Source: a virus. From it: a stretch of DNA of 64,000 nt. The notes under the pieces were generated by a model. It had not been told where the DNA came from. It saw nothing but the letters and a program-made list of their open reading frames with translations, and did not search any database. The stretch is from IMG/VR virus record IMGVR_UViG_3300006736_000004, positions 1-64,000 of that record; one strand, 5' to 3'. Each line of letters opens with the position of its first letter. The stretch's first letter is position 1. This document shows, piece after piece, positions 4,621 through 22,411 of the stretch. Made by a program: the position numbers and the translations under genes.

Positions 4621-4656
4621 TGTTGACCACAATAAACATATCAGCGCGGGTGTCAA
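4621..4656 (-). promoter_or_regulatory. Sigma70-like promoter P1 with inverted-repeat operator arms
   Basis: Read on the minus strand, TTGACA (4651-4656) and TATTGT (4629-4634) are separated by 16 bases, ahead of the amidoligase start. TTGAC at 4623-4627 on the plus strand and GTCAA at 4652-4656 form inverted arms around the -10. A 20-base block (4621-4640) recurs almost unchanged at 11579 and 18193. Confidence 0.75.
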
Positions 4657-8220: not shown

Positions 8221-10371
8221 ATGCCAAATGTCAACGACTCGCTCTTTGACGCCGGAAACCGCCACCAAACTTTCCTGATCAGATTCGGCGGGTCGTCCGC
8301 CCATGAAGCGACCGCGATCCTCGACGCCGCTGAAAAGGACTTGGTCGAGCGGATTGCCCAACGAGTCGCCCGTCTTGGACCCGCCGCCGCCGCGACCAAG
8401 GGGTCCAAGCGTCTGACCTCAATCCTCGCCGCCATCCGCCAGCAAAACCGCGATCTTATCAACGCTCTTCACAAGACCACGTCGAAGAACCTCAATGGTC
8501 TGGCAAAGCAAGAGGTCGGCCTTGCATTGAAGCGATTGAATGAGGCGGTCGGCGTTGACCTCGAAAACTTCCGTCCGTCGCCCGAAGTCCTCCGAACTCT
8601 CGTCCAGAAGCGTGGTGTAGGCGGCATATCGCTCCGTAGGTGGTTCACAAGGCTTGGCCGGGACCGTTTGGGTCGGTTGGAAAGTGCCGTCAATCTGGGG
8701 GTCGTTGAGGGCGACGGCATTCCAGACATGGTCCGGCGCTTCCGGCAAGCCGAAGACGTATCGAGACGGTCGGCGGAGACCTTGGTTCGGACCCATGTCA
8801 ACCACGTTGCCAACCAATCGCGGCAAGCCCTCTACTCTGCCAACTCTGACATCGTGGACAAGCTCCGGTGGACGGCGACCCTCGACGGGCGCACGTCGGC
8901 CATTTGCCAAGCGAGAGATGGGCGGACATTCCCCTTGGACAGTGGGCCGCGCCCACCGGCACATCCGAGTTGTCGGTCGATCATGACGCCGGTCATGAAG
9001 TCATGGGATGAACTGGCAAGGCCGGGAGCATTGAAGCCGGGGCGCGGAGCGGCTGACATCAACCGGCTATTCAAAAAGAACTTGGCGAAGCAAGGATTCA
9101 CCCCGGAGCAAATCAAGGGCATCCGGCGCAACACCCGCGCTTCGATGAACGGACAAGTGCCGCGCACCCAATCTTACCAGCAATGGCTCAAGCGCCAACC
9201 TCCGGAGTTCCAAGACGAGGTTCTTGGCTCGACCAAGGGACGGTTGTTCCGTGAGGGCAACGTCAAGCTCACCCGATTCGTTGACAACTCGACGGGGCGG
9301 GCGTTCACCTTGGACGAGATTCGTCGCCAGAATGAGAAGCCTTGGATGTCGATTGTCTCTGGCGTCCCGCAAGCTCCCATCAAAGTGGGCATGATAGACG
9401 CCGCCTTCGACGCTTCGACTGAAGTCGGCAAGCTCCATGAAGCCGCCCTTGGCGATGCGCCCGCCTATATCAAGAACGCCGCCTTGGCGTTGAAACAACT
9501 CCACCTTCTCAAGCCAGAAAAAGACAAGGATGGCTTTTACAATCCGGGGACGGGGGGCATTCATATGGGGATCAAAGACCCCACGGATTCCGTCCGGCGC
9601 ACAGAAGGGACATGGCGGCATGAGGTCGGCCATGCGATTGACCATGATGCGGCGGCACCCGGATTCTCATATGCCACTGAAAGCCCCGCCTACAAGAAAG
9701 CGATGAAGAAAGACCGTGGGGTGCTTATCAAGAACAACTCGCAAGCAGGGTCGGCATTCTTTTCCAAAGATGACAGGTTCTTCGATTCAAGGGCGGCGAC
9801 GGTGAAAGCAAAGATGCGGTTGGCCCAAAACCATATTGATGCGAACGAGCGCATTGCAGAGTTGACCATCGCAAGGCGCAAGGCGTCTGAGTCCTCGCCT
9901 CTTCGGAAAGGGAAGCATCGGTTGGAGCGCGAGTGGTTCCAAGAGAAGTTCGATGCCTTCGGGATGGACTTGGCTGACGTTGAGGCGGCGCTAAAGATTG
10001 ATAATGGCTTCGATACCTTCTCGACCAGCCGCCACAAGCTGACGCAAGTCTTGGTTTCGCTTGAGCGGAAAGATGCCGGGATGATGGTCAATGACATTCT
10101 TGATTGGAACGCCTATTATAGACAGGGCAACGTCGGCAAGGTCGCTGACTTCTTCGGAGCGATCACAAAGAACCATGCCGGGTATGGTCACAGAATAAAG
10201 GGCTATTATGGAGAGGGTGTTGGTCTTCAAGAAATGGAAGCATTCTCCAACGCGACGACTTTCTTGGCAGACAAGAATCCATTTTGGGCAACCTACATGA
10301 AGCACTTGGCACCCGGAACGATGCGCGAGGCGGAAGGAATATTGAGAAGTGGCAGATCGAAGTCTAAGTGA
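8221..10371 (+). CDS. MuF-type head morphogenesis protein fused to a zincin-like domain
   Basis: Residues about 150-260 form the MuF / SPP1 gp7 minor head domain, ending in the typical 'WTATLDGRTSAICQARDGRTF' and 'PPAHPSCRS' cluster, just after the portal as usual. Ordinary MuF proteins end soon after. This one continues for over 400 residues and contains R-HEVGHAIDHD, with HEVGH at 467-471, the HExxH zinc-binding motif of metallopeptidases. The extension resembles the effector or polyvalent cargo domains that MuF proteins carry into the host with the DNA. The MuF part is firm; peptidase activity is inferred from the motif alone. Confidence 0.85.
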   Translation: MPNVNDSLFDAGNRHQTFLIRFGGSSAHEATAILDAAEKDLVERIAQRVARLGPAAAATKGSKRLTSILAAIRQQNRDLINALHKTTSKNLNGLAKQEVGLALKRLNEAVGVDLENFRPSPEVLRTLVQKRGVGGISLRRWFTRLGRDRLGRLESAVNLGVVEGDGIPDMVRRFRQAEDVSRRSAETLVRTHVNHVANQSRQALYSANSDIVDKLRWTATLDGRTSAICQARDGRTFPLDSGPRPPAHPSCRSIMTPVMKSWDELARPGALKPGRGAADINRLFKKNLAKQGFTPEQIKGIRRNTRASMNGQVPRTQSYQQWLKRQPPEFQDEVLGSTKGRLFREGNVKLTRFVDNSTGRAFTLDEIRRQNEKPWMSIVSGVPQAPIKVGMIDAAFDASTEVGKLHEAALGDAPAYIKNAALALKQLHLLKPEKDKDGFYNPGTGGIHMGIKDPTDSVRRTEGTWRHEVGHAIDHDAAAPGFSYATESPAYKKAMKKDRGVLIKNNSQAGSAFFSKDDRFFDSRAATVKAKMRLAQNHIDANERIAELTIARRKASESSPLRKGKHRLEREWFQEKFDAFGMDLADVEAALKIDNGFDTFSTSRHKLTQVLVSLERKDAGMMVNDILDWNAYYRQGNVGKVADFFGAITKNHAGYGHRIKGYYGEGVGLQEMEAFSNATTFLADKNPFWATYMKHLAPGTMREAEGILRSGRSKSK

Positions 10372-10519
10372 TTGGCTCACAGAGTACGGGGAGACCTTCG
10401 GAGAGCTTCCGACAATGGCTAGATACCCGTCAGAGGAATCAATAATCAAGGCAATGAAAGAAGCTCTCCGGACCGGCGTCGAAATCCCTGTGGAAGACCC
10501 AAAGAAATTTCTTTACTAA
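10349..10519 (+). CDS. Small hypothetical protein
   Basis: A 56-residue frame starting at GTG 10349, inside the last codons of the MuF gene, with GGAAGGAAT upstream. It ends 'VEIPVEDPKKFLY', after a likely helix ('SIIKAMKEALRTG'). A shorter start at ATG 10415 is possible. It converges on the minus-strand island with a 4-base overlap. No family is recognised. Confidence 0.5.
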   Translation: MADRSLSDWLTEYGETFGELPTMARYPSEESIIKAMKEALRTGVEIPVEDPKKFLY

Positions 10520-10806
10520 ACGCCGATCTCCAAGTCGTCCATTTCCCTTTCCCAGGGCTCTTTGTCCAAACCCTCAAACCAAGTGACGGCTCCGTCCAAG
10601 GCACCCAAGAGCGAGGGTTCATCATACGGGGCATCCCCACCCAAGCGAGTCAGAACGTCGGGGCGGGCCTTGATGTATCGGCTCCATTCCCGCTCGACAT
10701 TGATTTGCGTCTTCTTGGCAAACGGTGGGCGCTCGACCAAGCTGGTATCATGTTGAACAAGGTGGATGCGGTTGTCGTCGGTTGCGACGACGAATGTGAT
10801 CTTCAC
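10516..10806 (-). CDS. Hypothetical protein
   Basis: Start taken at GTG 10806, which has AGGAGAAAGACC directly upstream; earlier ATGs in the open frame lie inside the next gene. The 96 residues begin with a beta-strand-like 'VKITFVVATDD' and end in an acidic tail ('EREMDDLEIGV'). It is the last gene of the minus-strand island driven from 11587-11614. No function is recognised. Confidence 0.65.
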   Translation of the reverse strand: MKITFVVATDDNRIHLVQHDTSLVERPPFAKKTQINVEREWSRYIKARPDVLTRLGGDAPYDEPSLLGALDGAVTWFEGLDKEPWEREMDDLEIGV

Positions 10807-10819
10807 GGTCTTTCTCCTG

Positions 10820-10924
10820 TCAAAGCGTTGTGATGATGTCGAAGGCCAGAGGCAAGAGCCAACAAAGGCCATAAAAGTACGCCGCGACGGCGACACATTC
10901 GGCGGTAAACTTGAGCGGGTTCAT
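10820..10924 (-). CDS. 34-residue single-pass membrane peptide
   Basis: A short frame with the standard GGAGAGACCAAATG start of this arm, overlapping the upstream gene's stop by four bases. Its pattern is M-(L/F)-x-AE-x-VAVA-YF-x(2)-CW-x(2)-PLA-x(2)-I-TT around one hydrophobic segment. The same pattern recurs in two 31-residue peptides of the right arm (58972-59067 and 60054-60149), so it is a real family. It should sit in the inner membrane. Confidence 0.65.
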   Translation of the reverse strand: MNPLKFTAECVAVAAYFYGLCWLLPLAFDIITTL

Positions 10925-11196
10925 TTGGTCTCTCCCTTGAAAAGTTGCTTGCATTCGTCAGACCCACACGATCCATCGCACGGGGCCAGATACTTGAGGT
11001 CGGACCGGATTTCTTTGGCGGTCGCTTCATGCCAAGGCCATCCGCGAGTGTGGCAACCGGGATCACCGGCTTCCCAATTCCATCCATCATTCAGATAGAG
11101 AAGGAAGCCCTCGTCCCCGTCGAGGTCGATGTTCTGGTCAACCTTCGGGTTGCCTTTGATGATCTTGCGGAGTTGGCGCATATTCATGGGCATCAT
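10921..11196 (-). CDS. Hypothetical protein, Cys/Trp-rich
   Basis: A 91-residue protein with 'DGWNWEAGDPGCHTRGWPW' and a Cys cluster 'APCDGSCGSDECK' near the C-terminus, which could bind a metal or form disulfides. Start MMPMN at 11196, with GAGGGAG upstream and a one-codon-step overlap with the gene before it. No named family is recognised. Confidence 0.6.
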   Translation of the reverse strand: MMPMNMRQLRKIIKGNPKVDQNIDLDGDEGFLLYLNDGWNWEAGDPGCHTRGWPWHEATAKEIRSDLKYLAPCDGSCGSDECKQLFKGETK

Positions 11197-11558: not shown

Positions 11559-11578
11559 GTTGTCTCTCCGTTGTTTGA

Positions 11579-11614
11579 TGTTGACTAGAATAAACATATT
11601 GGTGGGGGAGTCAA
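11579..11614 (-). promoter_or_regulatory. Sigma70-like promoter P2 with inverted-repeat arms
   Basis: On the minus strand TTGACT (11609-11614), 16 bases and TATTCT (11587-11592) precede the island 11558-10516. TTGAC at 11581-11585 and GTCAA at 11610-11614 are inverted arms with the same spacing as in P1. Confidence 0.75.
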
Positions 11615-11647: not shown

Positions 11648-12634
11648 ATGCACCCCTTGACGTTTCTGGCAAAATGGCAGACAAAGCGGGGCATGGTTCA
11701 AGCGATAAAGTTTGAGAGGCCGAAGGATGCGCCAAGCCTTCTGCCGTTCATCAAGTATGCGGCAAGTCTGAATCTCACCCATGTCGAGAAGGATCGACAC
11801 GCCGGGGAAGACTGTGTCATTTGCTCGACGGGGCCAACGCTCAAGAACAAATCCATCCTTCGCCAAATCAAGCATCTTGCCAAGACGCATACCGTTATCG
11901 CGCTGAAAGAGTCTATCCCGTTTCTCAAGAGCAAGGGGATCAAGGCCAAATATGCGGTGAGCATGGACCCCGGCGGCGAGAGGCAGATTGCCCGGACTCC
12001 AATCAATAAGGATGTGATCTATTGTGTCGCATCGTCCTGTCACCCGGACTTCTTTGATTACCTTATCGAAGGCGGGTGTGAAGTCCATGTCTTCCACTCT
12101 GCTTGCGGGCAAGGGGAGCCGGATTATGAAAAGGGGATGTTGCATGACTGCGGCAACAATCAACACGCCATTGTCGAGGGTGAGTATGTCATCACAACGA
12201 TGAACGATGGATATGAGTTTTGTCCGGTGGTCGGCATGGTCAAGCAAGAGATCGAAATCTATGGTGAGAACTTCGATGGCTATGCAGACGTGATGTGCGG
12301 CGGGTTTACTGTCACCAACCGCGCTCTGGCTTTGGCAAAGTACATGGGTTTCAAGAAGCCAATCATGGCAGGGACGGACTTTGGGTGGCGCAAAGAAGGC
12401 GGGTCGCATTATTCCGATCTCGTCAAAGTGCCGACCCATGATGACCAATACATGACCGACCAAGGGCAAGTTGACGGGACGCCTTGGTTCACCAGACCCG
12501 ACCAATTAGCAAGCGCCGCCGACGTGGCGAAAAAGATCAAGGCAGACGAAGTCGAAGTCTTGGGCGATTCGCTCGCGGCGGCATTATCCAAACGTGACGA
12601 TAAATTCCTTCGGGAGATCGTCCAAGTCAAATAG
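11648..12634 (+). CDS. DUF115 / MAF-type glycosyltransferase-like protein
   Basis: The sequence 'DCVICSTGPTLKN' followed by 'VIALKESIPFLKSKGIKAKYAVSMDPGG' is the signature of DUF115 (motility-associated-factor glycosyltransferase, related to sialic acid and MptE-type enzymes). Further blocks 'DVIYCVASSCHPDF' and 'VTNRALALAKYMGFKKPIMAGTDFG' belong to the same fold. In bacteria DUF115 proteins transfer nonulosonic acids or other sugars to flagellin. In this phage the gene sits among head genes, between MuF and scaffold, and may act with the modification island at 15882-21901. MVQAIKF at 11693 is an alternative start. Confidence 0.7.
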   Translation: MHPLTFLAKWQTKRGMVQAIKFERPKDAPSLLPFIKYAASLNLTHVEKDRHAGEDCVICSTGPTLKNKSILRQIKHLAKTHTVIALKESIPFLKSKGIKAKYAVSMDPGGERQIARTPINKDVIYCVASSCHPDFFDYLIEGGCEVHVFHSACGQGEPDYEKGMLHDCGNNQHAIVEGEYVITTMNDGYEFCPVVGMVKQEIEIYGENFDGYADVMCGGFTVTNRALALAKYMGFKKPIMAGTDFGWRKEGGSHYSDLVKVPTHDDQYMTDQGQVDGTPWFTRPDQLASAADVAKKIKADEVEVLGDSLAAALSKRDDKFLREIVQVK

Positions 12635-12645
12635 GGAGTGTCCTA

Positions 12646-13425
12646 ATGGCTAAGTTAAAACTGAAAATTGATTCTTTGGAAGATGTCCACGAAGACATCC
12701 GGGACGCCTATGTAAAGTCCAAAACCGGCGACGGATTCGAGTTGGACTTCGGTCAAATCAAAGAACACCCCGGAGTGGCGAAGGTCCGTCAGACGGCCAA
12801 CGAGGTCGATAAAAAGCGGGTTGATGCCGAGAAGGCGTTGGCCGCGATACAAGATAAATATGGCGACATCGACCCCGAAGAAGCGCGGGCGGCAATGCAA
12901 GCGGCGGAAGAGGCGGGCGACAAAAAGATGATCGACGCCGGAAAGATTGACGAGCTTGTCAACAACAAGGTCGTCAAGATGAAGACCGACTTTGAAAAGC
13001 AGATGGCGGCTAAAAACAAGGTCATCGAAGAATTGACCGCCGGGTCAACCGCTCTGACGGGCGAGCTTGCCGATATTAAAATCTATGACGCCATCAAGGA
13101 CGCTGCTCTCGCCAAGGGTGCGCGGAAGGAAGCCTTGCCGGACATCAAGGGGCGGGCAACCGGGATGTGGTCGCTGAAGGACGGCAAGCCAACCGCCATG
13201 AACGGCGAAGAGGAAGTCTATGGCAAGTCAGGCGAGGCGCTTTCGATTGGCGAATGGGTCGAGACCTTGGCGGCTGAATCACCCCATCTTTTCGAGCCGA
13301 ATAAAGGGGGTGGTGCGCCGGGGAGCGATTCGTCGGCGTTCAGTGGCGCGAAGGTTGTCGCTCCCGTCCATGCCGGGGACAATATCGCCGCGATTGCAGA
13401 TGGCTCAATGACTATTGACCATTAG
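12646..13425 (+). CDS. Capsid scaffolding protein
   Basis: A 259-residue, highly charged protein with a long predicted coiled coil (residues about 45-140, rich in K, E, A and D) and a Gly/Ser-rich, disordered C-terminal part ('NKGGGAPGSDSSAFSG'). It lies immediately before the coat protein. This is the standard position and composition of scaffolds, which guide coat assembly and then leave the procapsid. The identification rests on layout and composition. Confidence 0.8.
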   Translation: MAKLKLKIDSLEDVHEDIRDAYVKSKTGDGFELDFGQIKEHPGVAKVRQTANEVDKKRVDAEKALAAIQDKYGDIDPEEARAAMQAAEEAGDKKMIDAGKIDELVNNKVVKMKTDFEKQMAAKNKVIEELTAGSTALTGELADIKIYDAIKDAALAKGARKEALPDIKGRATGMWSLKDGKPTAMNGEEEVYGKSGEALSIGEWVETLAAESPHLFEPNKGGGAPGSDSSAFSGAKVVAPVHAGDNIAAIADGSMTIDH

Positions 13426-13527: not shown

Positions 13528-14667
13528 ATGGCGAACACCCTTACAAACATCCTTGACAAGATTCTAGCTCAAGGTCTCATGGCTTTGCGGGAAGCGGCTG
13601 TTATGCCCCGCTTAGTCAACACCGATTTTTCGGCAACCGGCGCGATGCAGGGTAGCACCGTTGACGTGCCGATTCCCAAAACACAAGCGGTCTCGACCGT
13701 CGCCGTTAGCAACGTGTTGAAAGCCCCGGCGTCGAAGGCTCCGTCCCTCGTCCAGATTTCCCTCGACCAATGGAAAATGACGGATTTTCACCTTACCGAT
13801 AAAGAACTTGCAGAGATCGACCGCAACCGGCATTTCATCCCCATGCAGACTTCCGAGGCTGCGCGGGCGCTTGCCAACAATCTCGACGTTGCGATCCACG
13901 GCAACTATACGGGCATTTACGGTTATGTCGGCACCGCCGCGACCGTCCCGTTTTCGACCGTTGCTTCCGCGACGGATGCCAGAAAGGTCTTGAACCAGCA
14001 ACTCGCGCCGATGAACGACCGGCGTGTTGTTCTTGATCCCACGGCGGAAGGCCAAGCTCTACAGCTTGCGGCTTATTCCGATGTCGAAAAATCCGATGAC
14101 CGCCCGGTGAAAATCGAAGGCGAGATTGGTCGGAAGTTCGGCATGGATCACTTCATGTCGCAGAATGTCGTCACTCATACCGGCGGCACGGCTGACGCTT
14201 CGATCACGGTTGGCTCGACCACGGCTATCGGCGTTTCGACGTTGATGTTCAAGTCGGGCGTTGGCTCCAAGACCATCGTTCTTGGCGATGTCTTCACGAT
14301 TGCTGGTGATAGTCAGACCTACACCGCCACGTCGGCCGACACGATCACGTCAACCGGCGTCAATCTCACGATTGCACCGGCTCTGCAAGTGATCGCTTCC
14401 TCGACCTCCGCGATCACCCTAAAGGCAACCCACGTTGTCAACCTCGCGTTCAATCGCGGCGCTTTCGTTTACGTCACGCGACCGCTACAAGATGCGGTGG
14501 GCGCTTTGACCGGCGGCAATCCGCAATCGGTCTTGGTGGACAACCAAACCGGCCTCACCATGAGGTTGGAAGTCGTCCGTCAGCACAAGCAAAACGCCTT
14601 CCAATTCGACATTCTGTACGGCACCAAGTTGATCCGTCCGGAGTTTGGCGTCCGAATCGCTGGTTAA
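13528..14667 (+). CDS. Major capsid protein (P22 coat-like)
   Basis: A 379-residue coat protein directly after the scaffold and followed by a strong terminator, as expected for the most highly expressed late gene. The N-terminus ('MANTLTNILDKILAQGLMAL'), the 'QWKMTDFHLTDKELAEIDR' segment and the C-terminal 'RLEVVRQHKQNAFQFDILYG' block match the P22 coat family of the HK97 fold. The region 195-290 is Ser/Thr-rich and beta-like and may be an inserted surface domain comparable to the P22 I-domain. Confidence 0.9.
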   Translation: MANTLTNILDKILAQGLMALREAAVMPRLVNTDFSATGAMQGSTVDVPIPKTQAVSTVAVSNVLKAPASKAPSLVQISLDQWKMTDFHLTDKELAEIDRNRHFIPMQTSEAARALANNLDVAIHGNYTGIYGYVGTAATVPFSTVASATDARKVLNQQLAPMNDRRVVLDPTAEGQALQLAAYSDVEKSDDRPVKIEGEIGRKFGMDHFMSQNVVTHTGGTADASITVGSTTAIGVSTLMFKSGVGSKTIVLGDVFTIAGDSQTYTATSADTITSTGVNLTIAPALQVIASSTSAITLKATHVVNLAFNRGAFVYVTRPLQDAVGALTGGNPQSVLVDNQTGLTMRLEVVRQHKQNAFQFDILYGTKLIRPEFGVRIAG

Positions 14668-14740: not shown

Positions 14741-15058
14741 ATGGCAAAGTTACCGACGATCAAGCTCCGCAATCGTGCCACCGGGCGGGTGGTAAAGCTC
14801 AATCAAACAGACTATGCGCGGGACATCTCAAAGTGGGATGGTTGGGCGGTGGTCTATGTCCAACGAGGCAACGCGACCGACGAGGAAGTGAACTTTTCGG
14901 CGGCTCAATCTGACATTGATAAATTCCGCCGCGAAGATCCGGCCCGACAAGCGTGGTCGCGGGATGACGAGCGAGCTTATAACGAAAGAAAGGTTACGGC
15001 GGGCGGTCCGGCTATCAAGCCGACGCTTATCACGCCGCAAGGGAAACCCCTTGTGTGA
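14741..15058 (+). CDS. Small head-region protein, paralogue of the gene at 15204
   Basis: This 105-residue protein starts 'MAKLPTIKLRNRATGRV' and continues '..LNQTDYARDISKWDGW'. The gene at 15204 has the same layout, so the two are tandem paralogues over their first 45 residues. The position after the coat suggests a head-associated or decoration role. The C-terminal half is charged and not shared. No named family is assigned. Confidence 0.7.
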   Translation: MAKLPTIKLRNRATGRVVKLNQTDYARDISKWDGWAVVYVQRGNATDEEVNFSAAQSDIDKFRREDPARQAWSRDDERAYNERKVTAGGPAIKPTLITPQGKPLV

Positions 15059-15203: not shown

Positions 15204-15521
15204 ATGGCAAGAGTCCCCACAGTAGAATTGAAGAATAAGAAATCAGGCGAGGTCCGGATTTGGAACAAGTCTGACTATGACCCCAAGCGCGATTCCAATT
15301 GGAAGGTCTTGGCGGACCGACCTACCGAAGACATGGTCGCCTCTGACGAGAGCGCGGTGATTGCCGCCGTTCCAACGCCGGAACCGAAAGCCGTCAAGGT
15401 CGAAGTTGTCAAGGATTGGCGCAAGATGCGGTGGCCCGAAGCGCGGCGGTATGTCCAAACCAAAACGGGGACCGCGCCACGTTCCAAGAAACAAGCAGAG
15501 GATTTGATGGCGGCGCTTTAA
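15204..15521 (+). CDS. Small head-region protein with HeH/LEM-like C-terminus
   Basis: The first 45 residues are paralogous to the gene at 14741 ('MARVPTVELKNKKSGEV', 'WNKSDYDPKRDSNW'). The C-terminus is different and reads like a short helix-extended-loop-helix unit ('WPEARRYVQTKTGTAPRSK' then 'AEDLMAAL'), a type found in phage head proteins and in Rho N-terminal/LEM folds that bind DNA or RNA. It has AGGAGAAGG before its ATG. A head-completion or DNA-contacting role is inferred. Confidence 0.7.
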   Translation: MARVPTVELKNKKSGEVRIWNKSDYDPKRDSNWKVLADRPTEDMVASDESAVIAAVPTPEPKAVKVEVVKDWRKMRWPEARRYVQTKTGTAPRSKKQAEDLMAAL

Positions 15522-15614: not shown

Positions 15615-15878
15615 ATGACTGACTTCACAAGACGAGGTTTCTTTCGAGCCGTGGGCGCATTGCTCCCCAAGGCGGCAGCGGTCGCCGTTGTCGCGCATGG
15701 GGTGGTGAAGTCTAAACCGGCCAAAGCCAGACCGGCGCAAGCGTCAACACTGGACAACCTTCCGAATCAAGGTGAGTGGGAGCCGGATGAAGCGCGTGTA
15801 TTTTATGCAAGTGCTTCCGTTTCATCCGACGATCCATTGGAGTTCGGCCCAACCTTCGCATATCGCCGGGAAGACTGA
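15615..15878 (+). CDS. Small protein with a Tat-type signal sequence
   Basis: The N-terminus 'TDFTRRGFFRAVGALLPK' carries a twin-arginine motif (T-R-R-G-F-F) followed by a hydrophobic stretch ending 'AVVAHG', the layout of a Tat export signal. The remaining 60 residues have no visible domain. AGGACAGGGAAA precedes the ATG. It lies just ahead of the modification island and ends three bases before its first gene. If exported folded, it would reach the periplasm during infection, which is unusual in a structural gene cluster. Confidence 0.65.
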   Translation: MTDFTRRGFFRAVGALLPKAAAVAVVAHGVVKSKPAKARPAQASTLDNLPNQGEWEPDEARVFYASASVSSDDPLEFGPTFAYRRED

Positions 15879-15881
15879 GCC

Positions 15882-16799
15882 GTGGGATACGGTGACGACC
15901 TCATGGGGACCGGCTTGGCTCGCGCCATCCGTGACCAGTACCCGGAGGCCAAGCTGGTCTTTGGGAATCCCGGCACCTATCACGACCCCAAGAACAACAA
16001 GATTTCCGTCCATTGGTCGGAGGTCTTTTTCAACAACCCCATCATTGTCCAGCCGGACGAGCCGGTGAAGGATATGGTTTGCATCCCCGATTATCCGGGG
16101 TGCCGGGTCTATCTTGACTATGAGAAGACGGAGAAAGAGGCGGACGGCAAGGCGCTGAAATATACGAAGTTCGCGTGGGCGGAGGGCTTCAAGGCTCCGA
16201 AGGGGGAGTTGTTTTTCAACAACGACGAGAAGTCCGCCGCCAGCGAAATCGCCCTCCGGTTGCCCAACCCGTTTTTTGTGATCGAACCGCACGTTGCCGA
16301 CAAGCCGTGGCCGAATAAGAAGGCATGGCCTTGGGATCGTTGGCAAGCTGTGGTCGATGCCCTTCCGGATGTGAAGTTTATCCAGATGTCGGGCGGGGAT
16401 GTCCTCGACCGTGTCCATCATGTCATGACCCCGACGTTTAGACAGGCTTGTGGCATCCTAGCTTGCGCGGGAGCGGTCGTCACGTCCGAAGGGGGACTTC
16501 ACCATGCGGCGGCGGCTCTTGACGTTCCAGCGGTCGTTTTATGGGGCCACTATACCTCGCCCGACATTCTGGGTTATGATGACCAAACCAATATCCGCCA
16601 TGCAGACGGGAACGGTTGCGGGAACACTTGGAACGAGTGTCCCGATTGCCAAGAGTCGATGCACAACATCAAGGTGGATGAAGTTGTCGAGACAATCAAA
16701 AAGGTGATTTCAGATGGACGCCATATCCATAGCCGCCAAGCAAGAGACCGATCAATCTTCCGGATGGTGGGCGCGACTGCCGAAGGAAAAGAAAAATGA
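15882..16799 (+). CDS. Glycosyltransferase family 9 (heptosyltransferase)-like protein
   Basis: Starts at GTG 15882 with 'GYGDDLMGTGLARAIR', the Gly-rich first strand-loop of GT9 ('GlGDxllat..'). The second domain has 'FIQMSGGD' and 'VVTSEGGLHHAAAALDVPAVVLWG', the GT9 nucleotide-sugar block. GT9 enzymes add heptose to the LPS core. About 26 residues at the C-terminus ('RHIHSRQARDRSIF...') look unlike the family and overlap another frame (see findings). It is the first gene of the modification island and overlaps the next by four bases. Confidence 0.8.
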   Translation: MGYGDDLMGTGLARAIRDQYPEAKLVFGNPGTYHDPKNNKISVHWSEVFFNNPIIVQPDEPVKDMVCIPDYPGCRVYLDYEKTEKEADGKALKYTKFAWAEGFKAPKGELFFNNDEKSAASEIALRLPNPFFVIEPHVADKPWPNKKAWPWDRWQAVVDALPDVKFIQMSGGDVLDRVHHVMTPTFRQACGILACAGAVVTSEGGLHHAAAALDVPAVVLWGHYTSPDILGYDDQTNIRHADGNGCGNTWNECPDCQESMHNIKVDEVVETIKKVISDGRHIHSRQARDRSIFRMVGATAEGKEK

Positions 16800-17647
16800 G
16801 TACCGCAAGCAAGCCGCAGACGCCAAGCGTCAACGTCTTCGTCCCCGACGAGCCAGCCGATCACGTCAAGCATCTCAACGCGATGGCGAAGGGGATACCG
16901 CAAGCAAGGATTCTGCCGCTTAAAAACGGTTACTCGCCATGCGATATTGCCGTCATCTTCGGGGTCGGCAAGCGTCAAGTCCCGGCAAGCTATGACCGTG
17001 GCGCGATTGTTTACGAGCATCGCTTCCGTGAGCGCAAGCCCATCATCATCCTTGAGCGCGGCTTTATCCAACGGGACAAATATTATGGGGTCGCCCTCGA
17101 CGGTCTGAATGGCTTGGGATGCTTCGGCAACGCCAACTCCAAGCCGGACCGCTGGAAGAAGCTCAAGACCAAAATCAAGCCGTGGCGCAACGGAGAATAT
17201 TTCCTTGTCTGCGGTCAAGTGCCGTGGGACGCTTCCGTCCAACATTCCAATCACACCAAATGGGTCCAAGACACCATCAAGTTGGTCGAGAGCTTGACCG
17301 ACGCGCCGGTCTATTTCAGACCACACCCGGACGTGAAGGGGAAGGTCGATTATGGAGTGCCGGAACGGGACACCACTTGGGAGCAAGACTTGGCCGGGGC
17401 AAAGGCGGTTATCACGTTCAACTCGACATCGTCAGCGATGGCGATCCTTGAGGGCATCCCGATATTTGCGGCGGACCCCGGCTGCATCGCTTGGGGCGTT
17501 GCCACCCATGAGATCACCAAAGAGGCGCTTGCCAACCCGCCCATGCTCGACCGGGAGCAATGGGCCTATGATCTGGCCTATGCCCAATGGACGGCGGAAG
17601 AGATGGAAACGGGTCAGCCGTGGCGGCAACTAGCGGGGGACGGATAG
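16796..17647 (+). CDS. GT-B-like glycosyltransferase / capsule-type sugar transferase
   Basis: Late blocks 'VYFRPHPDVKG' and 'AVITFNSTSSAMAILEGIPIFA' are typical of GT-B enzymes of capsule and polysaccharide synthesis (CDP-glycerol/Kdo-transferase-like), where the R-P-H-P and S-T-S loops hold the donor. The N-terminus 'VNVFVPDEPADH' is the first strand of the first Rossmann domain. ATGA overlap with the GT9 gene suggests co-translation. The donor and acceptor cannot be told. Confidence 0.6.
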   Translation: MSTASKPQTPSVNVFVPDEPADHVKHLNAMAKGIPQARILPLKNGYSPCDIAVIFGVGKRQVPASYDRGAIVYEHRFRERKPIIILERGFIQRDKYYGVALDGLNGLGCFGNANSKPDRWKKLKTKIKPWRNGEYFLVCGQVPWDASVQHSNHTKWVQDTIKLVESLTDAPVYFRPHPDVKGKVDYGVPERDTTWEQDLAGAKAVITFNSTSSAMAILEGIPIFAADPGCIAWGVATHEITKEALANPPMLDREQWAYDLAYAQWTAEEMETGQPWRQLAGDG

Positions 17648-17770
17648 GTGGACGACGAGGATGCCGCCAGAAGGCGCTACGAGGTCCGTTGGTGCGGATA
17701 CCATACAGTCTTGTGCCTTGGGGGTGATTGCCTTGTGTTGTCTGTACGGCGTTTTTTGGGGTTGGCCTAG
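17648..17770 (+). CDS. Possible small protein (40 residues)
   Basis: A GTG start directly after the preceding stop opens a 40-codon frame ending in TAG, encoding an Arg-, Cys- and Leu-rich peptide. It is next to a minus-strand terminator and has no clear ribosome-binding site of its own. It may be spurious. Confidence 0.25.
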   Translation: MDDEDAARRRYEVRWCGYHTVLCLGGDCLVLSVRRFLGLA

Positions 17771-17778
17771 TGGTTGAC

Positions 17779-17804
17779 AAAAAAAGACCCCGCCGAAGCG
17801 GGGT
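17779..17804 (-). terminator. Minus-strand rho-independent terminator
   Basis: On the minus strand a 7-bp stem (ACCCCGC / GCGGGGT, loop TTCG) is followed by seven T's. It closes the minus-strand island 18161-17826. Confidence 0.85.
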
Positions 17805-17825
17805 TAAGTTGGGAGAGAGGGGAGC

Positions 17826-17846
17826 TTATTCGGTCAAGATGTTCAT
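17826..17846 (-). CDS. Tiny coupled frame, six codons
   Basis: A GGAGAGACCAAATG start, identical to that of real genes in this arm, overlaps the upstream stop as ATGA but runs only six codons (MNILTE) to TAA. It may be the remnant start of a deleted gene or a regulatory mini-ORF. Confidence 0.3.
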   Translation of the reverse strand: MNILTE

Positions 17847-18031
17847 TTGGTCTCTCCGTTGCGTTTGAAAAATGTCCAGAAAGCAATCGCGCCGGGAGTG
17901 TGATGTGTCCACTTTCTACTTTTCAGCAAATGCCACATTCGGTTAATGGCGCGGAGCGTATATTCGTGGTCTCGCCCCTCTGCCTTCATCCTGGCGGCCT
18001 CAGTGTAGATTTTGTCAATAGAGAGTTTCAT
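17843..18031 (-). CDS. Small basic hypothetical protein
   Basis: Start at 18031 (MKLSIDKIYT) with GAAGGGAAATACC upstream; the 418-codon open frame extending to 19099 is a chance opening antisense to other genes. The 62 residues are helical and basic ('EYTLRAINRMWHLLKSRKW') and end 'AIAFWTFFKRNGETK', possibly membrane-interacting. No family is recognised. Confidence 0.6.
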   Translation of the reverse strand: MKLSIDKIYTEAARMKAEGRDHEYTLRAINRMWHLLKSRKWTHHTPGAIAFWTFFKRNGETK

Positions 18032-18050
18032 GGTATTTCCCTTCAATAAT

Positions 18051-18161
18051 TTAATTCGTGATGAAGACGCCGAAGCCACGGTGGGCATACATGATGGCGT
18101 CGGGGGACTTGGAAATGACGACAGGGGCGTAAGAACGTCCGGGGTTGATTCGCTTTTGCAT
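18051..18161 (-). CDS. Small hypothetical protein, first gene of minus-strand island 3
   Basis: A 36-residue frame with the CGGAGAGACCAAATG start, about 40 bases downstream of promoter P3. The product is basic at the start ('MQKRINPGRSYAPVVISKS') and ends 'RGFGVFITN'. No family is recognised. Confidence 0.55.
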   Translation of the reverse strand: MQKRINPGRSYAPVVISKSPDAIMYAHRGFGVFITN

Positions 18162-18192
18162 TTGGTCTCTCCGTCGTTTTGTTGTTGAATGA

Positions 18193-18229
18193 TGTTGACC
18201 ACAATAAACAAACTCCATGGGGAGGTCAA
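18193..18229 (-). promoter_or_regulatory. Sigma70-like promoter P3 with inverted-repeat arms
   Basis: On the minus strand TTGACC (18224-18229), 17 bases and TATTGT (18201-18206) drive 18161-17826. TTGAC at 18195-18199 and GTCAA at 18225-18229 repeat the arms seen in P1 and P2. Confidence 0.75.
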
Positions 18230-18236
18230 GGGAAAA

Positions 18237-18362
18237 ATGATGGTAAAGTGGTTTGTCCTCTTTTTCGTGGTCGGCGGCTTGGCGGTCATCCTCTTTTCAG
18301 ACAACCCAACCTTGATTAACCCGTGGCCGAGTCCAAAGGCGCACCATGACAAAGCATACTGA
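18237..18362 (+). CDS. Small single-pass membrane protein
   Basis: A 41-residue frame with GGGGAGGTCAAGGG upstream; residues 3-21 are one hydrophobic segment ('WFVLFFVVGGLAVILF'), followed by a Pro/His-rich tail. It ends two bases before the sulfotransferase start. It may be a membrane accessory of the modification island. Confidence 0.55.
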   Translation: MMVKWFVLFFVVGGLAVILFSDNPTLINPWPSPKAHHDKAY

Positions 18363-18364
18363 CC

Positions 18365-19036
18365 ATGAGCATCTATAGCCTCGAAAAGAAAGTCGCGTTC
18401 ATTCACATCCCGAAAAACGCCGGGACCAGCATCCGGGCCAATCTCAAAAAGGCGGTGCCGGACTTCCGCGACTTCGACGCCATTGATGAAGCGCACCGCA
18501 AGGTCCGCAACCAAGCCTTCGCCAACCACTTCCCATATTGGAAAATCCAAGAGCTTTTGCGCGAGACCAATTCCGACATTCCTTTCGAGGGTATGAAGGT
18601 CTTTATGGTGGTCCGCAATCCGTGGGCGCGGATGCTGTCCTTGTACCGCCACCGGCTCCGCAAGTTGGATTGGCATTACGAGGGCAAGGAACGCAACACA
18701 GAGCTTGATAAGAAAGTTTGCCGAGCGGGCTTCGTGCCTTGGCTCACCCAAACCCCGCATGAGGGGGACAGCGTCTTGACCCGGACGGCTCAACTTGAAT
18801 GGGGAATCAACCTCAACGGCAAGATAGGCGTTGACAAGATTCTCATGATGGAAAAGCTGACGAAGCTCTATGCCGACACGCTTGGCCCTTGGGACATCAC
18901 CGTGCCGCCGTTGGGGCGGTCCAACCAAGGCGATGGCGTGTCGAAGGATTACCGAAGGCACTACACCCAAGAGGCGAGGAACCATATCGAAAGGTGGTTT
19001 GGGCCAGACATTGAGGCGTTCAATTATGAATTTTGA
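18365..19036 (+). CDS. PAPS-dependent sulfotransferase (family 2 type)
   Basis: Residues 12-22 (FIHIPKNAGTS) form the 5'-phosphosulfate loop and residues 83-93 (VRNPWARMLSL, with Arg84 and Ser92) the 3'-phosphate-binding element of PAPS-dependent sulfotransferases. The layout matches the 'sulfotransferase family 2' group that sulfates carbohydrates. At 223 residues it is a compact but complete domain. It would move sulfate from PAPS to a sugar hydroxyl. It lies among glycosyl- and methyltransferases, and its stop overlaps the next gene. It is unusual in a phage. Confidence 0.85.
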   Translation: MSIYSLEKKVAFIHIPKNAGTSIRANLKKAVPDFRDFDAIDEAHRKVRNQAFANHFPYWKIQELLRETNSDIPFEGMKVFMVVRNPWARMLSLYRHRLRKLDWHYEGKERNTELDKKVCRAGFVPWLTQTPHEGDSVLTRTAQLEWGINLNGKIGVDKILMMEKLTKLYADTLGPWDITVPPLGRSNQGDGVSKDYRRHYTQEARNHIERWFGPDIEAFNYEF

Positions 19037-20030
19037 ATTTCCTGACATTGCCGACTTCCCCGAAAACGAAGCCCCTTGTTTCCCGGAGGAAATTGACACG
19101 GACCACTTGTTCCGCGATCAATATAAATTCAAGGACGATTCGAGGGAGTTGGCAACGCTCATGACCGAAGCGATGGGCTTGGGCGAAGACCACATCAAAA
19201 TCCAACGCAAGCAGATCAACCGGATTGTTGATGCGGCGCGAAACTATTTCAGCTTGAAGCTAAACAAGCGCCGGGACGACCTTGCTGATAGTCGGGCATA
19301 TAAGAACCTTGTCCAAGACGGCATCCATGCCATCCAAGCCGATACGACGGAACTTTTGGGGATGTTCAAAGAGCGAGCGAGGGTGTTGGAGAAGCGAGAG
19401 CGCAAGACCGGCTTGACCGATTACGACCGCGCTCAAATCGACAACTCCCCGACAACGCTGAAAGCGATCTATAAGTTGCTCGACCGGAACGGCTTGCTTG
19501 AGGCCGGAACCAAGTACCGTGGCGGGAGCCAATTGTCAGTCCGGTCCGCGACCCTCCATGTCGCCAAGCCGGGGGACCGCCATCATTACCAGCAATTCCG
19601 CGATTGTGAAACTTCAACCAAGCTGCTCAATCTGCATTTCGATCCGAAGCCGGGGATCATGAAGGCAATCATCTATCTTGGGGAGGTCGAGGCTCACGAC
19701 GGGCCGTTTAACTGGATCAAGGGTTCGCACCGTTGGAACTATGGCGAAATGGAGCGGGTCTTCGCTTGGGGAAATAGCATCGGCAATTACTGCCACACCC
19801 CGGATCACCGGATTGTCGCCAACGCCTTCCCGAAGCGGTTTCGGGGCAATGCCATCGTCGGTCGGTTGATCCCGGACGGAACTAGGGAAAGCCGGGTTCT
19901 TTTAAGTATGCTTCACCCATACCTTTCCGACGAGGCCAATGTCATGTTCTTTGACCCGACCTTCGGGCTGCATTGCGGCGGTAATCCGACAAGCGGGACG
20001 AGAACCAACCTACAAGTGGTGATGCGATGA
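19026..20030 (+). CDS. 2-oxoglutarate/Fe(II) oxygenase, PhyH-like
   Basis: The start ATG at 19026 overlaps the sulfotransferase end; an upstream in-frame ATG at 18870 is rejected because it lies within that gene. The C-terminal half carries a jelly-roll oxygenase pattern: H204-F-D206, 'GPFNWIKGSHRW' (PhyH-type P-G-S-H block), H316 and R326 ('SGTRTNLQVVMR'), which match the facial triad and the 2OG-binding Arg. The N-terminal 150 residues are helical and unassigned. The enzyme would hydroxylate a small molecule or sugar-lipid; the target is not evident. Confidence 0.75.
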   Translation: MNFEFPDIADFPENEAPCFPEEIDTDHLFRDQYKFKDDSRELATLMTEAMGLGEDHIKIQRKQINRIVDAARNYFSLKLNKRRDDLADSRAYKNLVQDGIHAIQADTTELLGMFKERARVLEKRERKTGLTDYDRAQIDNSPTTLKAIYKLLDRNGLLEAGTKYRGGSQLSVRSATLHVAKPGDRHHYQQFRDCETSTKLLNLHFDPKPGIMKAIIYLGEVEAHDGPFNWIKGSHRWNYGEMERVFAWGNSIGNYCHTPDHRIVANAFPKRFRGNAIVGRLIPDGTRESRVLLSMLHPYLSDEANVMFFDPTFGLHCGGNPTSGTRTNLQVVMR

Positions 20031-20734
20031 GACTTTCAGACGCAGTCCTCAAGCGGCGGGTCTTCAACCAAGCCGTAAATGACGCGCTACAAGCCAAGAC
20101 GATTATGGGTGCCTTGGGTCCATATATCGACAAGAACCGCCTCACCGTGGACGTGGGGGGCGCTACGGGCCACTTTACCCACTACTTTGCGCCCCGGTCC
20201 CGTCATGTCCATGCTTTCGAGGCTGTCCCGGAAGTTTGGATGCAATTACGGAAAAAGGGAGACGAGTTTGTCAACGTGACGGCGCACAACAAAGCGGTCG
20301 GTGACGTGTTCGGCAAGTCGGAGTTCTTTGTCGATGACAAGCGGCTCTCCAATTCTGGCTACCAAGACCTTGTCGGCGGGCCGAAGATTACCGTCGATTC
20401 AATCACGCTTGACCGCTTCTTTCGAGACGAGGGGCAAATCGGATTCATCAAGATTGATGTCGAGGGGACAGAAAAGAACGTCCTCGTCGGGGCGCGGGAG
20501 ATCATTCAACGGGACCGCCCGAATCTGCTTGTCGAGATTTACGAGCCATTCTGCAATTGCCCGGTGAGCGCGATCTTCGCATGGCTCATGGTAGAAGGCT
20601 ATCTGTGCTATTATTATGACCATCCCAATCTTGTCCGGGTGCCTTCCATAGTGGCCGGGGTCGATGCCGTAATGACCAAACACAAAATCCATGACGGTGA
20701 CTTCCTTTTCGTGAACGGGGAAAATGATGGGTAG
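20027..20734 (+). CDS. FkbM-family methyltransferase
   Basis: The SAM-binding motif 'TVDVGGATGHFTHYFA' is followed by 'HAFEAVPEVW', and the FkbM signature 'IGFIKIDVEGTEKNVLVGA' with 'NLLVEIYE' appears later. FkbM enzymes methylate hydroxyls of sugars and polyketides. It overlaps its neighbours by four (upstream) and eleven bases, so the island is translated as one unit. It would plausibly methylate the same glycan that the sulfotransferase modifies. Confidence 0.85.
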   Translation: MRLSDAVLKRRVFNQAVNDALQAKTIMGALGPYIDKNRLTVDVGGATGHFTHYFAPRSRHVHAFEAVPEVWMQLRKKGDEFVNVTAHNKAVGDVFGKSEFFVDDKRLSNSGYQDLVGGPKITVDSITLDRFFRDEGQIGFIKIDVEGTEKNVLVGAREIIQRDRPNLLVEIYEPFCNCPVSAIFAWLMVEGYLCYYYDHPNLVRVPSIVAGVDAVMTKHKIHDGDFLFVNGENDG

Positions 20735-21326
20735 CACGACAGGCGAAAGACAGATTGGTAGCCAGCAAGAGGACATAGCGATCAACCACCGCGCCCGATA
20801 CGAGTGGGCGGCGAAGCTCTTGCGCCAGCACATCCCGGAGAAAAGCCATATCCTCGACGCCGCTTGCGGGTGCGGCTACGGGTCAGAGATATTGGCTCAA
20901 CACGGATTCTTGGTGACGGCTTACGATATGTCTGACGAGGCGGCGAAGTGGCAAAAGCAATTCGACCACCCGCACGTCAACTTCATCCAAGACGATGTCT
21001 TCGGGGCGGTCGAGTTCGGCCAGACATATGACGCCGTGGTCTCCATCGAAACGATTGAACACATCACGGATGCCCCAGCATGGATTAGCAAGCTCTTGAA
21101 GGCGTCCCCGCTTCTCGTTGGGACTGTCCCGAATGAACATACCACCCCGTTCAATCCCAACAAGCATCCGTTTCACCACCGGCACTACACGAAGGATCAA
21201 GTCCTTGGGTTGTTCAACGAGTGGGAGCTTTCAGATTGGGCAACCCAATATGCCAAATACAAGAACTATGAGATGCGCCCCGGCGATGATGGGATGACCC
21301 TTGGGTTTTTGGCGAGGCGAGGATGA
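20724..21326 (+). CDS. Class I SAM-dependent methyltransferase
   Basis: Motif I 'ILDAACGCGYGSEILA', the acidic end of strand 2 ('VTAYDMSD') and 'YDAVVSIETIEHI' (motif II/post II) mark a Rossmann-fold methyltransferase of the UbiG/methyltransf_11/23 type. The 200-residue length is normal. The ATG lies inside the FkbM gene, and the stop overlaps the next start. Sugar or small-molecule methylation is likely from context. Confidence 0.8.
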   Translation: MMGSTTGERQIGSQQEDIAINHRARYEWAAKLLRQHIPEKSHILDAACGCGYGSEILAQHGFLVTAYDMSDEAAKWQKQFDHPHVNFIQDDVFGAVEFGQTYDAVVSIETIEHITDAPAWISKLLKASPLLVGTVPNEHTTPFNPNKHPFHHRHYTKDQVLGLFNEWELSDWATQYAKYKNYEMRPGDDGMTLGFLARRG

Positions 21327-21901
21327 TGGACGCCATAAAACTTGGGGCAAGCGTCATCCGTCAAGAGGCCAAGGGGCTTCAACGGCTCGCCGCCAAGCTC
21401 GACAAGCAGTTTGCCGAAGCGGTCTTGATCCTTGATTGCCAGGGCAAGATTGTTTTGACGGGCGTCGGCAAGTCCGGCCATGTCTGTCGGAAGGTCGCCG
21501 CCACGATGACGAGCTTGGGCCGACCGGCGATCTTCATTCATCCAACCGAAGCCGCGCATGGCGACATGGCATTGATAGACAGCCGGGACGCTTTGCTTGT
21601 TCTTTCGCGGTCGGGAATGGCGGACGAATTAAGGCCACTGTTGAAATTTGCGTCAGATCACGGTATTCCTACGGTATTGATTTCGGAGCATGACAAGACC
21701 GGCTTGGCCGTTTGGGTCAACACGGTGGTCAAGCTACCGAAGGTCGAGGAAGCATGGGGCCATGCGCCAACGACATCGACAACCATGCAAATGGCGGTCG
21801 GGGATGCGATAGCGGTAGCCTTGGCAAGTCGGCACGGTTGGACTGTGAGGGATTTTATCGAACATCATCCCGGCGGGGCGCTAGGGTCTGAAAAGAGGTA
21901 A
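21323..21901 (+). CDS. SIS-domain sugar-phosphate isomerase (KpsF/GutQ/KdsD-like), no CBS domains
   Basis: The protein has 'KIVLTGVGKSGHVCRKVAA', 'FIHPTEAAHGDMALID', 'LLVLSRSGMADEL', 'HAPTTSTTMQMAVGDA' and 'IEHHPGGALG', the full set of D-arabinose-5-phosphate isomerase motifs. This enzyme makes the precursor of Kdo, a sugar of LPS core and capsule. Bacterial KdsD is about 325 residues with two C-terminal CBS domains; here the 192-residue protein stops after the SIS domain. It closes the modification island. Confidence 0.85.
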   Translation: MMDAIKLGASVIRQEAKGLQRLAAKLDKQFAEAVLILDCQGKIVLTGVGKSGHVCRKVAATMTSLGRPAIFIHPTEAAHGDMALIDSRDALLVLSRSGMADELRPLLKFASDHGIPTVLISEHDKTGLAVWVNTVVKLPKVEEAWGHAPTTSTTMQMAVGDAIAVALASRHGWTVRDFIEHHPGGALGSEKR

Positions 21902-21904: not shown

Positions 21905-22411
21905 ATGGCGATTACATTGGTTGTCGAGGACGGAACGGGCTTAACCAACGCCAACACCTATATCTCGTTGGCGGATGCTGACACATATTTCGAGAGTCAC
22001 GTTTACTCGTCCGGTTGGGATGCGGCGACGGACGCCAACAAGAACATCGCCTTGGCAATGGCGACCCGCTTGCTCGACGCTTATTTTATTTTTGAGGGAC
22101 GGAAGATTGGGGACAGCCAAGCACTTGAATTCCCCCGGTTCGACATCAGGGACCGCTCCGGTTTCTTGATTGTCTCGACAACGATCCCGCAAGCGTTAAA
22201 GGATGCGGTGGCGGAGTTCGCGCAATTCATGATTGCGTCGGATCGGACGGCGGACGCCTCTGGTCAAGGATTCAAGTTGCTCAAGGCCGGGAGTCTTACC
22301 ATGCAACCGGACCCCGGCGACAAGCCGCCGGTCATCCCGGACGTGGTCAAACAATTAATCAATTTTTTGGGTCGGCCCGCCGGGTCGATGTCGGTTCCGT
22401 CAACGAGGTAG
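21905..22411 (+). CDS. Head-completion protein (DnaT-like fold)
   Basis: 'ANTYISLADADTYF' near the N-terminus and the helical 'ALAMATRLLDAYFIFEGRK' belong to the phage family annotated as DnaT-like, found between coat and tail genes and thought to form the head-tail adaptor. Structural gene order resumes here after the modification island. Adaptors of this type sit below the portal and prepare the head for tail joining. Confidence 0.7.
   Translation: MAITLVVEDGTGLTNANTYISLADADTYFESHVYSSGWDAATDANKNIALAMATRLLDAYFIFEGRKIGDSQALEFPRFDIRDRSGFLIVSTTIPQALKDAVAEFAQFMIASDRTADASGQGFKLLKAGSLTMQPDPGDKPPVIPDVVKQLINFLGRPAGSMSVPSTR

What the first reader, a model, noticed from the sequence alone, without database searches (positions are those of the whole stretch)
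15882..21901. Glycan-building and sulfation island inside a phage head operon
Seven overlapping or adjoining genes, with a small membrane protein in between, encode a GT9-like transferase, a GT-B-like transferase, a PAPS sulfotransferase, a PhyH-type oxygenase, an FkbM methyltransferase, a class I methyltransferase and a KdsD-like isomerase without CBS domains. They lie between head genes, and a DUF115 glycosyltransferase (11648) and a GT25-like one (1326) are nearby. Together they could build or edit a methylated, sulfated sugar on the virion or the host surface. I know of no described phage system with this set.
Basis: partly seen in the sequence, partly recalled or inferred. Interest (0 to 1): 0.8.

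Follow-up and report, generated by a model that had tools for sequence, protein, structure and literature searches.

The report
Phage head-operon Kdo-type glycan island
Inside the capsid genes of an uncultured tailed phage sits a conserved set of sugar-building genes that probably makes a Kdo-containing, sulfated and methylated glycan, most likely to decorate the virus particle itself, a kind of phage sugar coat that I did not find described.

Summary
Seven intact genes (GT9, a second GT-B transferase, sulfotransferase, PhyH-like oxygenase, FkbM and class I methyltransferases, single-domain KdsD-like isomerase) lie between the P22-type capsid gene and the head-tail adaptor. All seven recur in that slot and order in independent contigs down to 66% capsid identity. 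Those counted are under purifying selection (dN/dS 0.09-0.15), with active-site motifs invariant. Other phages of the clade carry variable glycan cassettes at the same place.

By profile and by fold, the 'GT-B-like' protein matches best the retaining beta-Kdo transferases (KpsC, WbbB, KrkA), with their QxxxD nucleophile and HP motifs. The isomerase matches single-domain arabinose-5-phosphate isomerases. Two relatives encode CMP-Kdo synthetase. The DUF115 protein upstream folds like Maf flagellin glycosyltransferase, a family known to put Kdo on serine/threonine.

Best explanation: a late-expressed pathway builds a Kdo-containing, sulfated, methylated glycan on a virion protein. The pathway is well supported; the virion as acceptor is inferred. 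The main rival is host-LPS remodelling.

Caveats: no biochemistry exists, the acceptor is unknown, and the record joins two phages (the island lies wholly in one).

The parts
11648..12634 (+). DUF115/MptE-like, Maf-like putative protein O-glycosyltransferase, between head-morphogenesis and scaffold genes
   Evidence: Pfam MptE-like 7e-20; PDB profile best hit 5mu5 Maf 2.8e-5; Foldseek best hit 5mu5 1.1e-6; NCBIfam flagellin modification PseD 4.5e-9
12646..13425 (+). head scaffolding protein (context)
   Evidence: phrog_206 1.9e-32
13528..14667 (+). P22-type major capsid protein (context)
   Evidence: Pfam P22_CoatProtein 7.8e-21; tblastn to phage capsid genes
14741..15058 (+). small protein after capsid gene; also present in relatives without an island
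15204..15521 (+). second small protein, matched by the same profile (paralogue)
15615..15878 (+). 87-aa protein with a twin-arginine (Tat)-like leader MTDFTRRGFFRAVGALL; RR-motif leaders recur in sister islands
   Evidence: sequence, islands
15882..16799 (+). GT9 (heptosyltransferase-like) glycosyltransferase, GTG start
   Evidence: Pfam GT9 4.8e-8; PDB WaaF 1psw 2.7e-5
16796..17647 (+). putative retaining beta-Kdo (ulosonic acid) transferase; Q141xxxD145 and H177-P178 invariant, candidate base E87
   Evidence: PDB profile KpsC 6mgd 2.3e-6; Foldseek top 18 all Kdo transferases; alignment
17787..18229 (-). antisense mini transcription unit in the gap: promoter-like motif 18192-18229, small ORFs 18051-18218 and 17843-18031, terminator 17787-17804
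18189..18362 (+). small single-span membrane protein (start perhaps about 18237, after an RBS-like GGAGG/GGGAAAA)
18365..19036 (+). PAPS-dependent sulfotransferase (Sulfotransfer_2)
   Evidence: Pfam 5.2e-10; PKNAGTS and RNPWxRMxSL motifs invariant
19026..20030 (+). PhyH-like Fe(II)/2-oxoglutarate oxygenase (by motif)
   Evidence: H204xD206, H316, R326 invariant; no Pfam match
20027..20734 (+). FkbM-family methyltransferase
   Evidence: Pfam 4.5e-17; TIGR01444 above cutoff
20724..21326 (+). class I methyltransferase (Methyltransf_23); part of the island core in most relatives
   Evidence: Pfam 4.1e-14; islands
21323..21901 (+). single-domain (no CBS) arabinose-5-phosphate isomerase, KdsD-like
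   Evidence: PDB 5uqi 4.1e-43, 3etn 8e-40, KdsD 2xhz 4.6e-39; NCBIfam KdsD 1.9e-44 over the SIS part
21905..22411 (+). head-tail adaptor Ad1, right border of the island
   Evidence: phrog_477 7.9e-37

Best explanation
The island is a late-expressed, phage-encoded glycan pathway built round Kdo (3-deoxy-D-manno-octulosonate) or a close ulosonic acid, and its most likely product is a glycan on a virion (head) protein. Proposed steps: (1) the single-domain isomerase turns ribulose-5-phosphate into arabinose-5-phosphate and so raises the Kdo supply; host KdsA/KdsC/KdsB make CMP-Kdo (some sister phages instead bring their own KdsB). (2) The Maf-like DUF115 enzyme, encoded between head-morphogenesis and scaffold genes, puts the first sugar on Ser/Thr of a head protein. 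(3) The KpsC/WbbB-like enzyme adds beta-Kdo by double displacement through Asp145, and the GT9 enzyme adds a heptose-like sugar. (4) The sulfotransferase, the two methyltransferases and the Fe/2OG oxygenase cap or edit the chain. Shown by sequence or structure: gene identities, motifs, linkage, conservation. Inferred: Kdo as donor, the order of steps, and above all the virion protein as acceptor.
For: GT-B protein: its profile finds in PDB only KpsC and WbbB, and its model's top 18 Foldseek hits are KpsC, KrkA and WbbB, all retaining Kdo transferases. The nucleophile motif QXXXD and the HP motif are invariant in 8/8 (motifs defined in PMC10148158 and PMC12887879). Isomerase: best PDB matches are A5P isomerases. 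KdsB (NF003952 above cutoff in one) is encoded by two other phages carrying the same DUF115+GT island. DUF115: Maf is the best profile and fold match; Clostridium Maf adds Kdo or Neu5Ac to flagellin Ser/Thr (PMC11339370). Place: in the clade the cassette always lies between capsid and Ad1 where both ends are held; GT and DUF115 divergence track capsid divergence. An unrelated phage group has a 543-aa DUF115 protein directly next to the same GT. Selection. Precedent: mycobacteriophages Che8 and Rita carry glycans covalently attached to capsid protein (Freeman 2023, cited in PMC11256854).
Against: No acceptor is identified; the small proteins next to the capsid gene also occur without the island. 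Kdo and GT9/heptose chemistry is typical of LPS inner core, which favours the host-surface rival. KpsC homologues can also use pseudaminic acid (PMC12887879), so the donor may not be Kdo. No KdsA/NeuB in the ten records searched and no KdsB in the window record. The DUF115 protein covers only the central part of Maf and also matches MptE pyrophosphokinase. TM-scores are about 0.5. Divergence tracking may simply reflect vertical inheritance. GT9 match E-values are moderate.
Confidence: 0.55

Rival explanations
1. The island remodels the host LPS or capsule during infection: Kdo, heptose, sulfate and methyl groups alter the inner core to block re-adsorption of progeny or superinfecting phages.
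For: GT9 matches WaaF/WaaC; KdsD and KdsB are LPS enzymes; the GT-B enzyme resembles capsule and O-antigen Kdo transferases.
Against: Position inside the head operon in the same slot across the clade, where virion-building genes sit; DUF115/Maf-like enzyme is a protein-glycosylating family by fold; no lipid-linked glycan export, flippase or ligase gene seen in the islands examined.
Confidence: 0.3
2. Same pathway, but the ulosonic acid is not Kdo (for example pseudaminic or legionaminic acid); the isomerase serves another sugar.
For: A KpsC-homologous pseudaminic acid transferase exists (PMC12887879); Maf enzymes natively use nine-carbon ulosonic acids (PMC11339370).
Against: The isomerase is A5P-type, two sister phages carry KdsB rather than NeuA/PseF, and no NeuB-family gene was found.
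Confidence: 0.1
3. DNA modification: A5P from the KdsD-like enzyme feeds arabinosylation of hydroxymethylcytosine, as in RB69-type T4-like phages.
For: T4-like phages carry A5P isomerase homologues; DNA arabinosylation in RB69 is from memory.
Against: The island lies in the head operon; its GT-B enzyme is Kdo-transferase-like; sulfotransferase and Maf-like genes have no role there; no hydroxymethylase was identified in the parts annotated.
Confidence: 0.02
4. Unrelated accessory genes that accumulated by chance, or an assembly artefact.
For: Island content varies between relatives and the record joins two phages.
Against: All seven genes in the same order in independent contigs; dN/dS 0.09-0.15 where countable; the join lies at about 33 kb, outside the island.
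Confidence: 0.03

Closest known systems
Mycobacteriophage virion glycosylation (Che8, Rita; Freeman et al. 2023, cited in PMC11256854)
   Same: Phage-encoded glycosyltransferases proposed to put glycans on the phage's own particle; precedent for capsid glycans
   Different: Actinobacterial phages; in Maravista the GT genes lie near the 3' end of the genome, not in the head operon; no sulfotransferase, Kdo-transferase-like or A5P isomerase set reported in what I could read
Group 2 capsule / O-antigen beta-Kdo transferases KpsC (GT107), WbbB (GT99), KrkA (GT140)
   Same: Fold, QxxxD nucleophile and HP motif
   Different: Phage enzyme is a single 283-residue module, far diverged; found beside head genes, not capsule genes; donor untested
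Maf flagellin glycosyltransferases (5mu5; Clostridium botulinum Maf)
   Same: DUF115/MptE core fold; Maf can transfer Kdo to Ser/Thr (PMC11339370)
   Different: Half the length of Maf; beside scaffold and capsid genes instead of flagellin genes; acceptor unknown
Caulobacter jumbo phages (Bertelyvirus; CcrSC, CcrColossus)
   Same: A cluster after the tail genes with homologues of both GTs plus FkbM
   Different: 25-31% identity; next to tail fibre and lysozyme genes; mostly annotated hypothetical, no function assigned there; DUF115 not matched
T4-like (RB69-type) A5P isomerase
   Same: SIS-domain A5P isomerase in a phage
   Different: About 30% identity, different genome context; used for DNA arabinosylation (from memory)

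Membership tests
Retaining beta-Kdo transferase (GT99/GT107/GT140 fold group) | Fold: closest solved structures are Kdo transferases | tested here: met
   Foldseek ranks 1-18 KpsC/KrkA/WbbB, E 6.6e-7 to 4e-4, prob 1.0
Retaining beta-Kdo transferase (GT99/GT107/GT140 fold group) | QXXXD nucleophile motif and HP (CMP-binding) motif | tested here: met
   Q141, D145, H177, P178 invariant in 8/8; motif definitions
Retaining beta-Kdo transferase (GT99/GT107/GT140 fold group) | Glu general base | tested here: inconclusive
   E87 at the end of strand 83-88 is Glu in 7/8, Asp in L010; not superposed
Retaining beta-Kdo transferase (GT99/GT107/GT140 fold group) | CMP-Kdo donor use, covalent Kdo adduct | not testable with these tools
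   needs enzyme
Single-domain arabinose-5-phosphate isomerase | SIS domain of the KdsD/GutQ/KpsF group without CBS domains | tested here: met
   192 aa; PDB 5uqi, 3etn, 2xhz; NCBIfam full-length cutoffs not reached because the CBS part is absent
Single-domain arabinose-5-phosphate isomerase | Catalytic residues | tested here: met
   K50, H79, E102, H182 invariant, spaced like K59/H88/E111/H193 of E. coli KdsD (those numbers from memory)
Maf/DUF115 protein O-glycosyltransferase | DUF115 core fold | tested here: met
   5mu5 best by profile and fold
Maf/DUF115 protein O-glycosyltransferase | Full-length Maf architecture | tested here: not met
   328 aa against 666 aa; only the core matches
Maf/DUF115 protein O-glycosyltransferase | Transfer to protein Ser/Thr | not testable with these tools
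   acceptor unknown
PAPS sulfotransferase | 5' and 3' PAPS-binding motifs | tested here: met
   PKNAGTS and RNPWxRMxSL invariant in 4/4
PhyH / Fe(II)-2OG oxygenase | HxD...H facial triad and 2OG-binding Arg | tested here: met
   H204xD206, H316, R326 invariant in 5/5
PhyH / Fe(II)-2OG oxygenase | Match to a PhyH family profile | tested here: not met
   no Pfam match at E 0.1; weak PDB match to a hydroxylase, E 0.038
GT9 heptosyltransferase | GT9 profile above curated cutoff | tested here: met
   33.1 bits against cutoff 22; C-terminal domain only
Phage virion glycosylation system | GT genes linked with virion genes | tested here: met
   same slot across the clade
Phage virion glycosylation system | Glycan on a virion protein | not testable with these tools
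   no particle data

The most novel reading that the evidence does not exclude
A clade of uncultured P22-coat siphoviruses O-glycosylates its own capsid in the host cytoplasm with a Kdo-containing, sulfated, methylated glycan, using a Maf-type protein glycosyltransferase and a KpsC-type Kdo transferase, and boosts the donor with its own KdsD or KdsB: a bacterial LPS/capsule sugar moved onto a virus particle.
Probability: 0.35. Interest if true: 0.8.

Novelty: new variant of a known kind. Interest (0 to 1): 0.64.

Why it matters
Phage particle glycosylation has been shown in only a few phages (mycobacteriophages Che8 and Rita are those found here). This island gives a defined, testable pathway for Gram-negative phages: one sugar (Kdo), one candidate protein-attaching enzyme (DUF115/Maf-like), one candidate nucleophile (Asp145). 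A conserved slot with exchangeable sugar genes suggests that these phages diversify their coats as bacteria diversify O-antigens, which bears on adsorption, particle stability and immune recognition of phages. It also extends the retaining Kdo transferases to a largely viral branch: 110 matching viral loci against 3 loci in 84,980 species genomes under similar patterns.

Tried and rejected
Chance or moron accumulation: rejected by synteny and dN/dS. Assembly artefact: the record is a join of two phages, but the join (about 33 kb) is outside the island. GmhA-type sedoheptulose isomerase for the SIS protein: not among the matches. Acceptor search by gene co-occurrence: the small protein after the capsid gene also occurs without the island. 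DNA near-match in cultured phages: none. Own-record scan for Sulfotransfer_1 (PF00685) and CTP_transf_3: none; KdsA and NeuB families absent in ten records. PhyH-like and sulfotransferase profiles found no clear solved relative. Literature: Freeman 2023 text not held; searches for phage Kdo glycosylation and phage sulfotransferase+FkbM gave nothing on point. The host genome scan gave no prophage with this island, so the host is unknown.
Full report
WHAT IS THERE. The seven genes are real and intact. They lie in a head operon: terminase, portal, head morphogenesis, DUF115 protein, scaffold, P22-type coat protein, two small genes, an 87-aa protein with a Tat-like leader, the island, then head-tail adaptor Ad1 and head closure Hc1. 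The oxygenase most likely starts at 19026, not 18870. The gap 17648-18188 is not empty: on the minus strand it has a promoter-like motif, two small ORFs and a strong terminator, and one small ORF has a homologue in the same gap of L004.

CONSERVATION. A scan of 2.9 million viral contigs with the coat protein, then with the GT-B protein profile, brought in relatives. The full set of seven in the same order occurs in the 100%-identical contig L002, in L003/L004 (71-93% protein identity), L005 (55-83%), L007 (36-66%) and L058. NG86 dN/dS for island genes is 0.09-0.15 where dS is not saturated, against 0.04-0.13 for flanking head and tail genes (no ratio could be taken for the class I methyltransferase). 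Catalytic motifs of the sulfotransferase, oxygenase, FkbM, isomerase and GT-B proteins are invariant. So the island is an old functional unit.

A CASSETTE SLOT. In 22 loci compared, the stretch between coat protein (or its small follower) and Ad1 always holds the GT-B protein and nearly always the class I methyltransferase, with exchangeable extras: GT9 or another GT, GT8-like enzymes, GDP-mannose dehydratase, radical SAM, sulfotransferases, oxygenase, FkbM, isomerase, small membrane and RR-leader proteins. Most of these loci were picked by the GT-B protein itself. In the unbiased coat-protein set, the nine loci with at least 50% coat identity and enough downstream sequence (L004, L005, L007-L012, L043) all have it, two as a longer 619-aa protein. 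By tblastn none was seen in more distant coat relatives. The SIS isomerase is in 7 of 26 contigs of the island/DUF115 group and in 0 of 19 others; many of these contigs are short. Divergence of the GT-B, DUF115 and methyltransferase proteins tracks that of the coat protein (Mantel p about 0.0005), as vertical inheritance would give.

THE KDO LOGIC. The GT-B profile hits in PDB only KpsC (2.3e-6) and WbbB (0.09-0.7). Its AlphaFold model (pLDDT 82.6) has as its 18 best PDB matches KpsC, KrkA and WbbB. These enzymes form a covalent Asp-Kdo adduct; the literature names QXXXD and HP as the conserved elements, and the phage family has Q141-D145 and H177-P178 in 8/8. A candidate base, E87, sits at the end of a strand, as in WbbB and KpsC, but is Asp in one member and was not superposed. 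The isomerase matches single-domain A5P isomerases. Two relatives with the same DUF115+GT island, lacking the isomerase, encode KdsB: all NCBIfam and PDB top hits are 3-deoxy-manno-octulosonate cytidylyltransferase, one above the curated cutoff. So different members reinforce different steps of CMP-Kdo supply. Caveat: a KpsC homologue using pseudaminic acid is known.

WHY THE VIRION. DUF115's best profile and fold match is the Maf glycosyltransferase 5mu5, and Clostridium Maf puts Kdo or Neu5Ac on flagellin Ser/Thr. In an unrelated phage group a 543-aa DUF115 protein lies directly next to the GT-B homologue, an independent sign that the two work together. Head-operon location implies late expression with virion proteins. 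Capsid glycans are known in mycobacteriophages. Against: Kdo plus GT9/heptose is also LPS chemistry, and no acceptor was found. I give virion decoration 0.55 and LPS remodelling 0.3.

COMPARISON. Among 50,697 phage records, DUF115 has no match. The two GTs plus FkbM have distant counterparts in Caulobacter jumbo phages, after the tail genes. T4-like phages have isomerase homologues. The whole set is not there. The GT-B subfamily is largely viral.

LIMITS. Metagenomic contigs only; host unknown; single-method structure models; TM-scores about 0.5; E87 and the PhyH assignment unproven. The window record joins a siphovirus fragment (to about 32.8 kb) to a podovirus; the island and its head genes are in the siphovirus part and are confirmed by independent contigs.

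Noticed in passing
window 32800-33500 and L001: The record appears to join two phages: up to 32.8 kb it is syntenic with siphovirus contigs G001/G003 (GC about 0.55); from 33.5 kb it is a P22-like podovirus (GC about 0.46) with its own terminase, portal and capsid, whose relatives L146/L148/L151 place the record's last genes directly before 33501. Probably an assembly chimera.
   Followed up: yes
window 4620-4636, 11578-11594, 18192-18208 (minus): A 17-bp motif TTTATTNTGGTCAACAT occurs three times on the minus strand (expected 0.02), each time in front of minus-strand ORFs inside the rightward late operon: perhaps an early promoter of small antisense gene units.
   Followed up: partly
window 15615-15878; L061 11175-11732; L062 13922-14380; L066 7720-8253; L079 (143 aa): Small proteins with twin-arginine-like leaders (e.g. 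MKRRAFLK, TRRGFFRA) recur in these phage glycan islands; a Tat-exported phage protein would be unusual. Function unknown.
   Followed up: partly
L043/L079 gmd gene (L043 12793-14808): The GDP-mannose dehydratase gene of this island appears to carry a large internal insertion resembling an intein; HNH-endonuclease-like ORFs sit between other island genes.
   Followed up: no
L133 (Agrobacterium vitis), 8813-10951: A rare chromosomal homologue of the phage GT-B protein lies beside a sulfotransferase-like gene in A. vitis.
   Followed up: partly
L119, L120-L124, L127, L131: Unrelated phages with a 543-aa DUF115 protein overlapping or adjoining the GT-B gene; other contigs (L081, L128, L130) carry three to five tandem or nearby GT-B paralogues.
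   Followed up: partly
window 178-1326 and 55031-55912: Two PAPS-reductase-like genes, one in each of the two joined phages (the second judged from its sequence start only).
   Followed up: no
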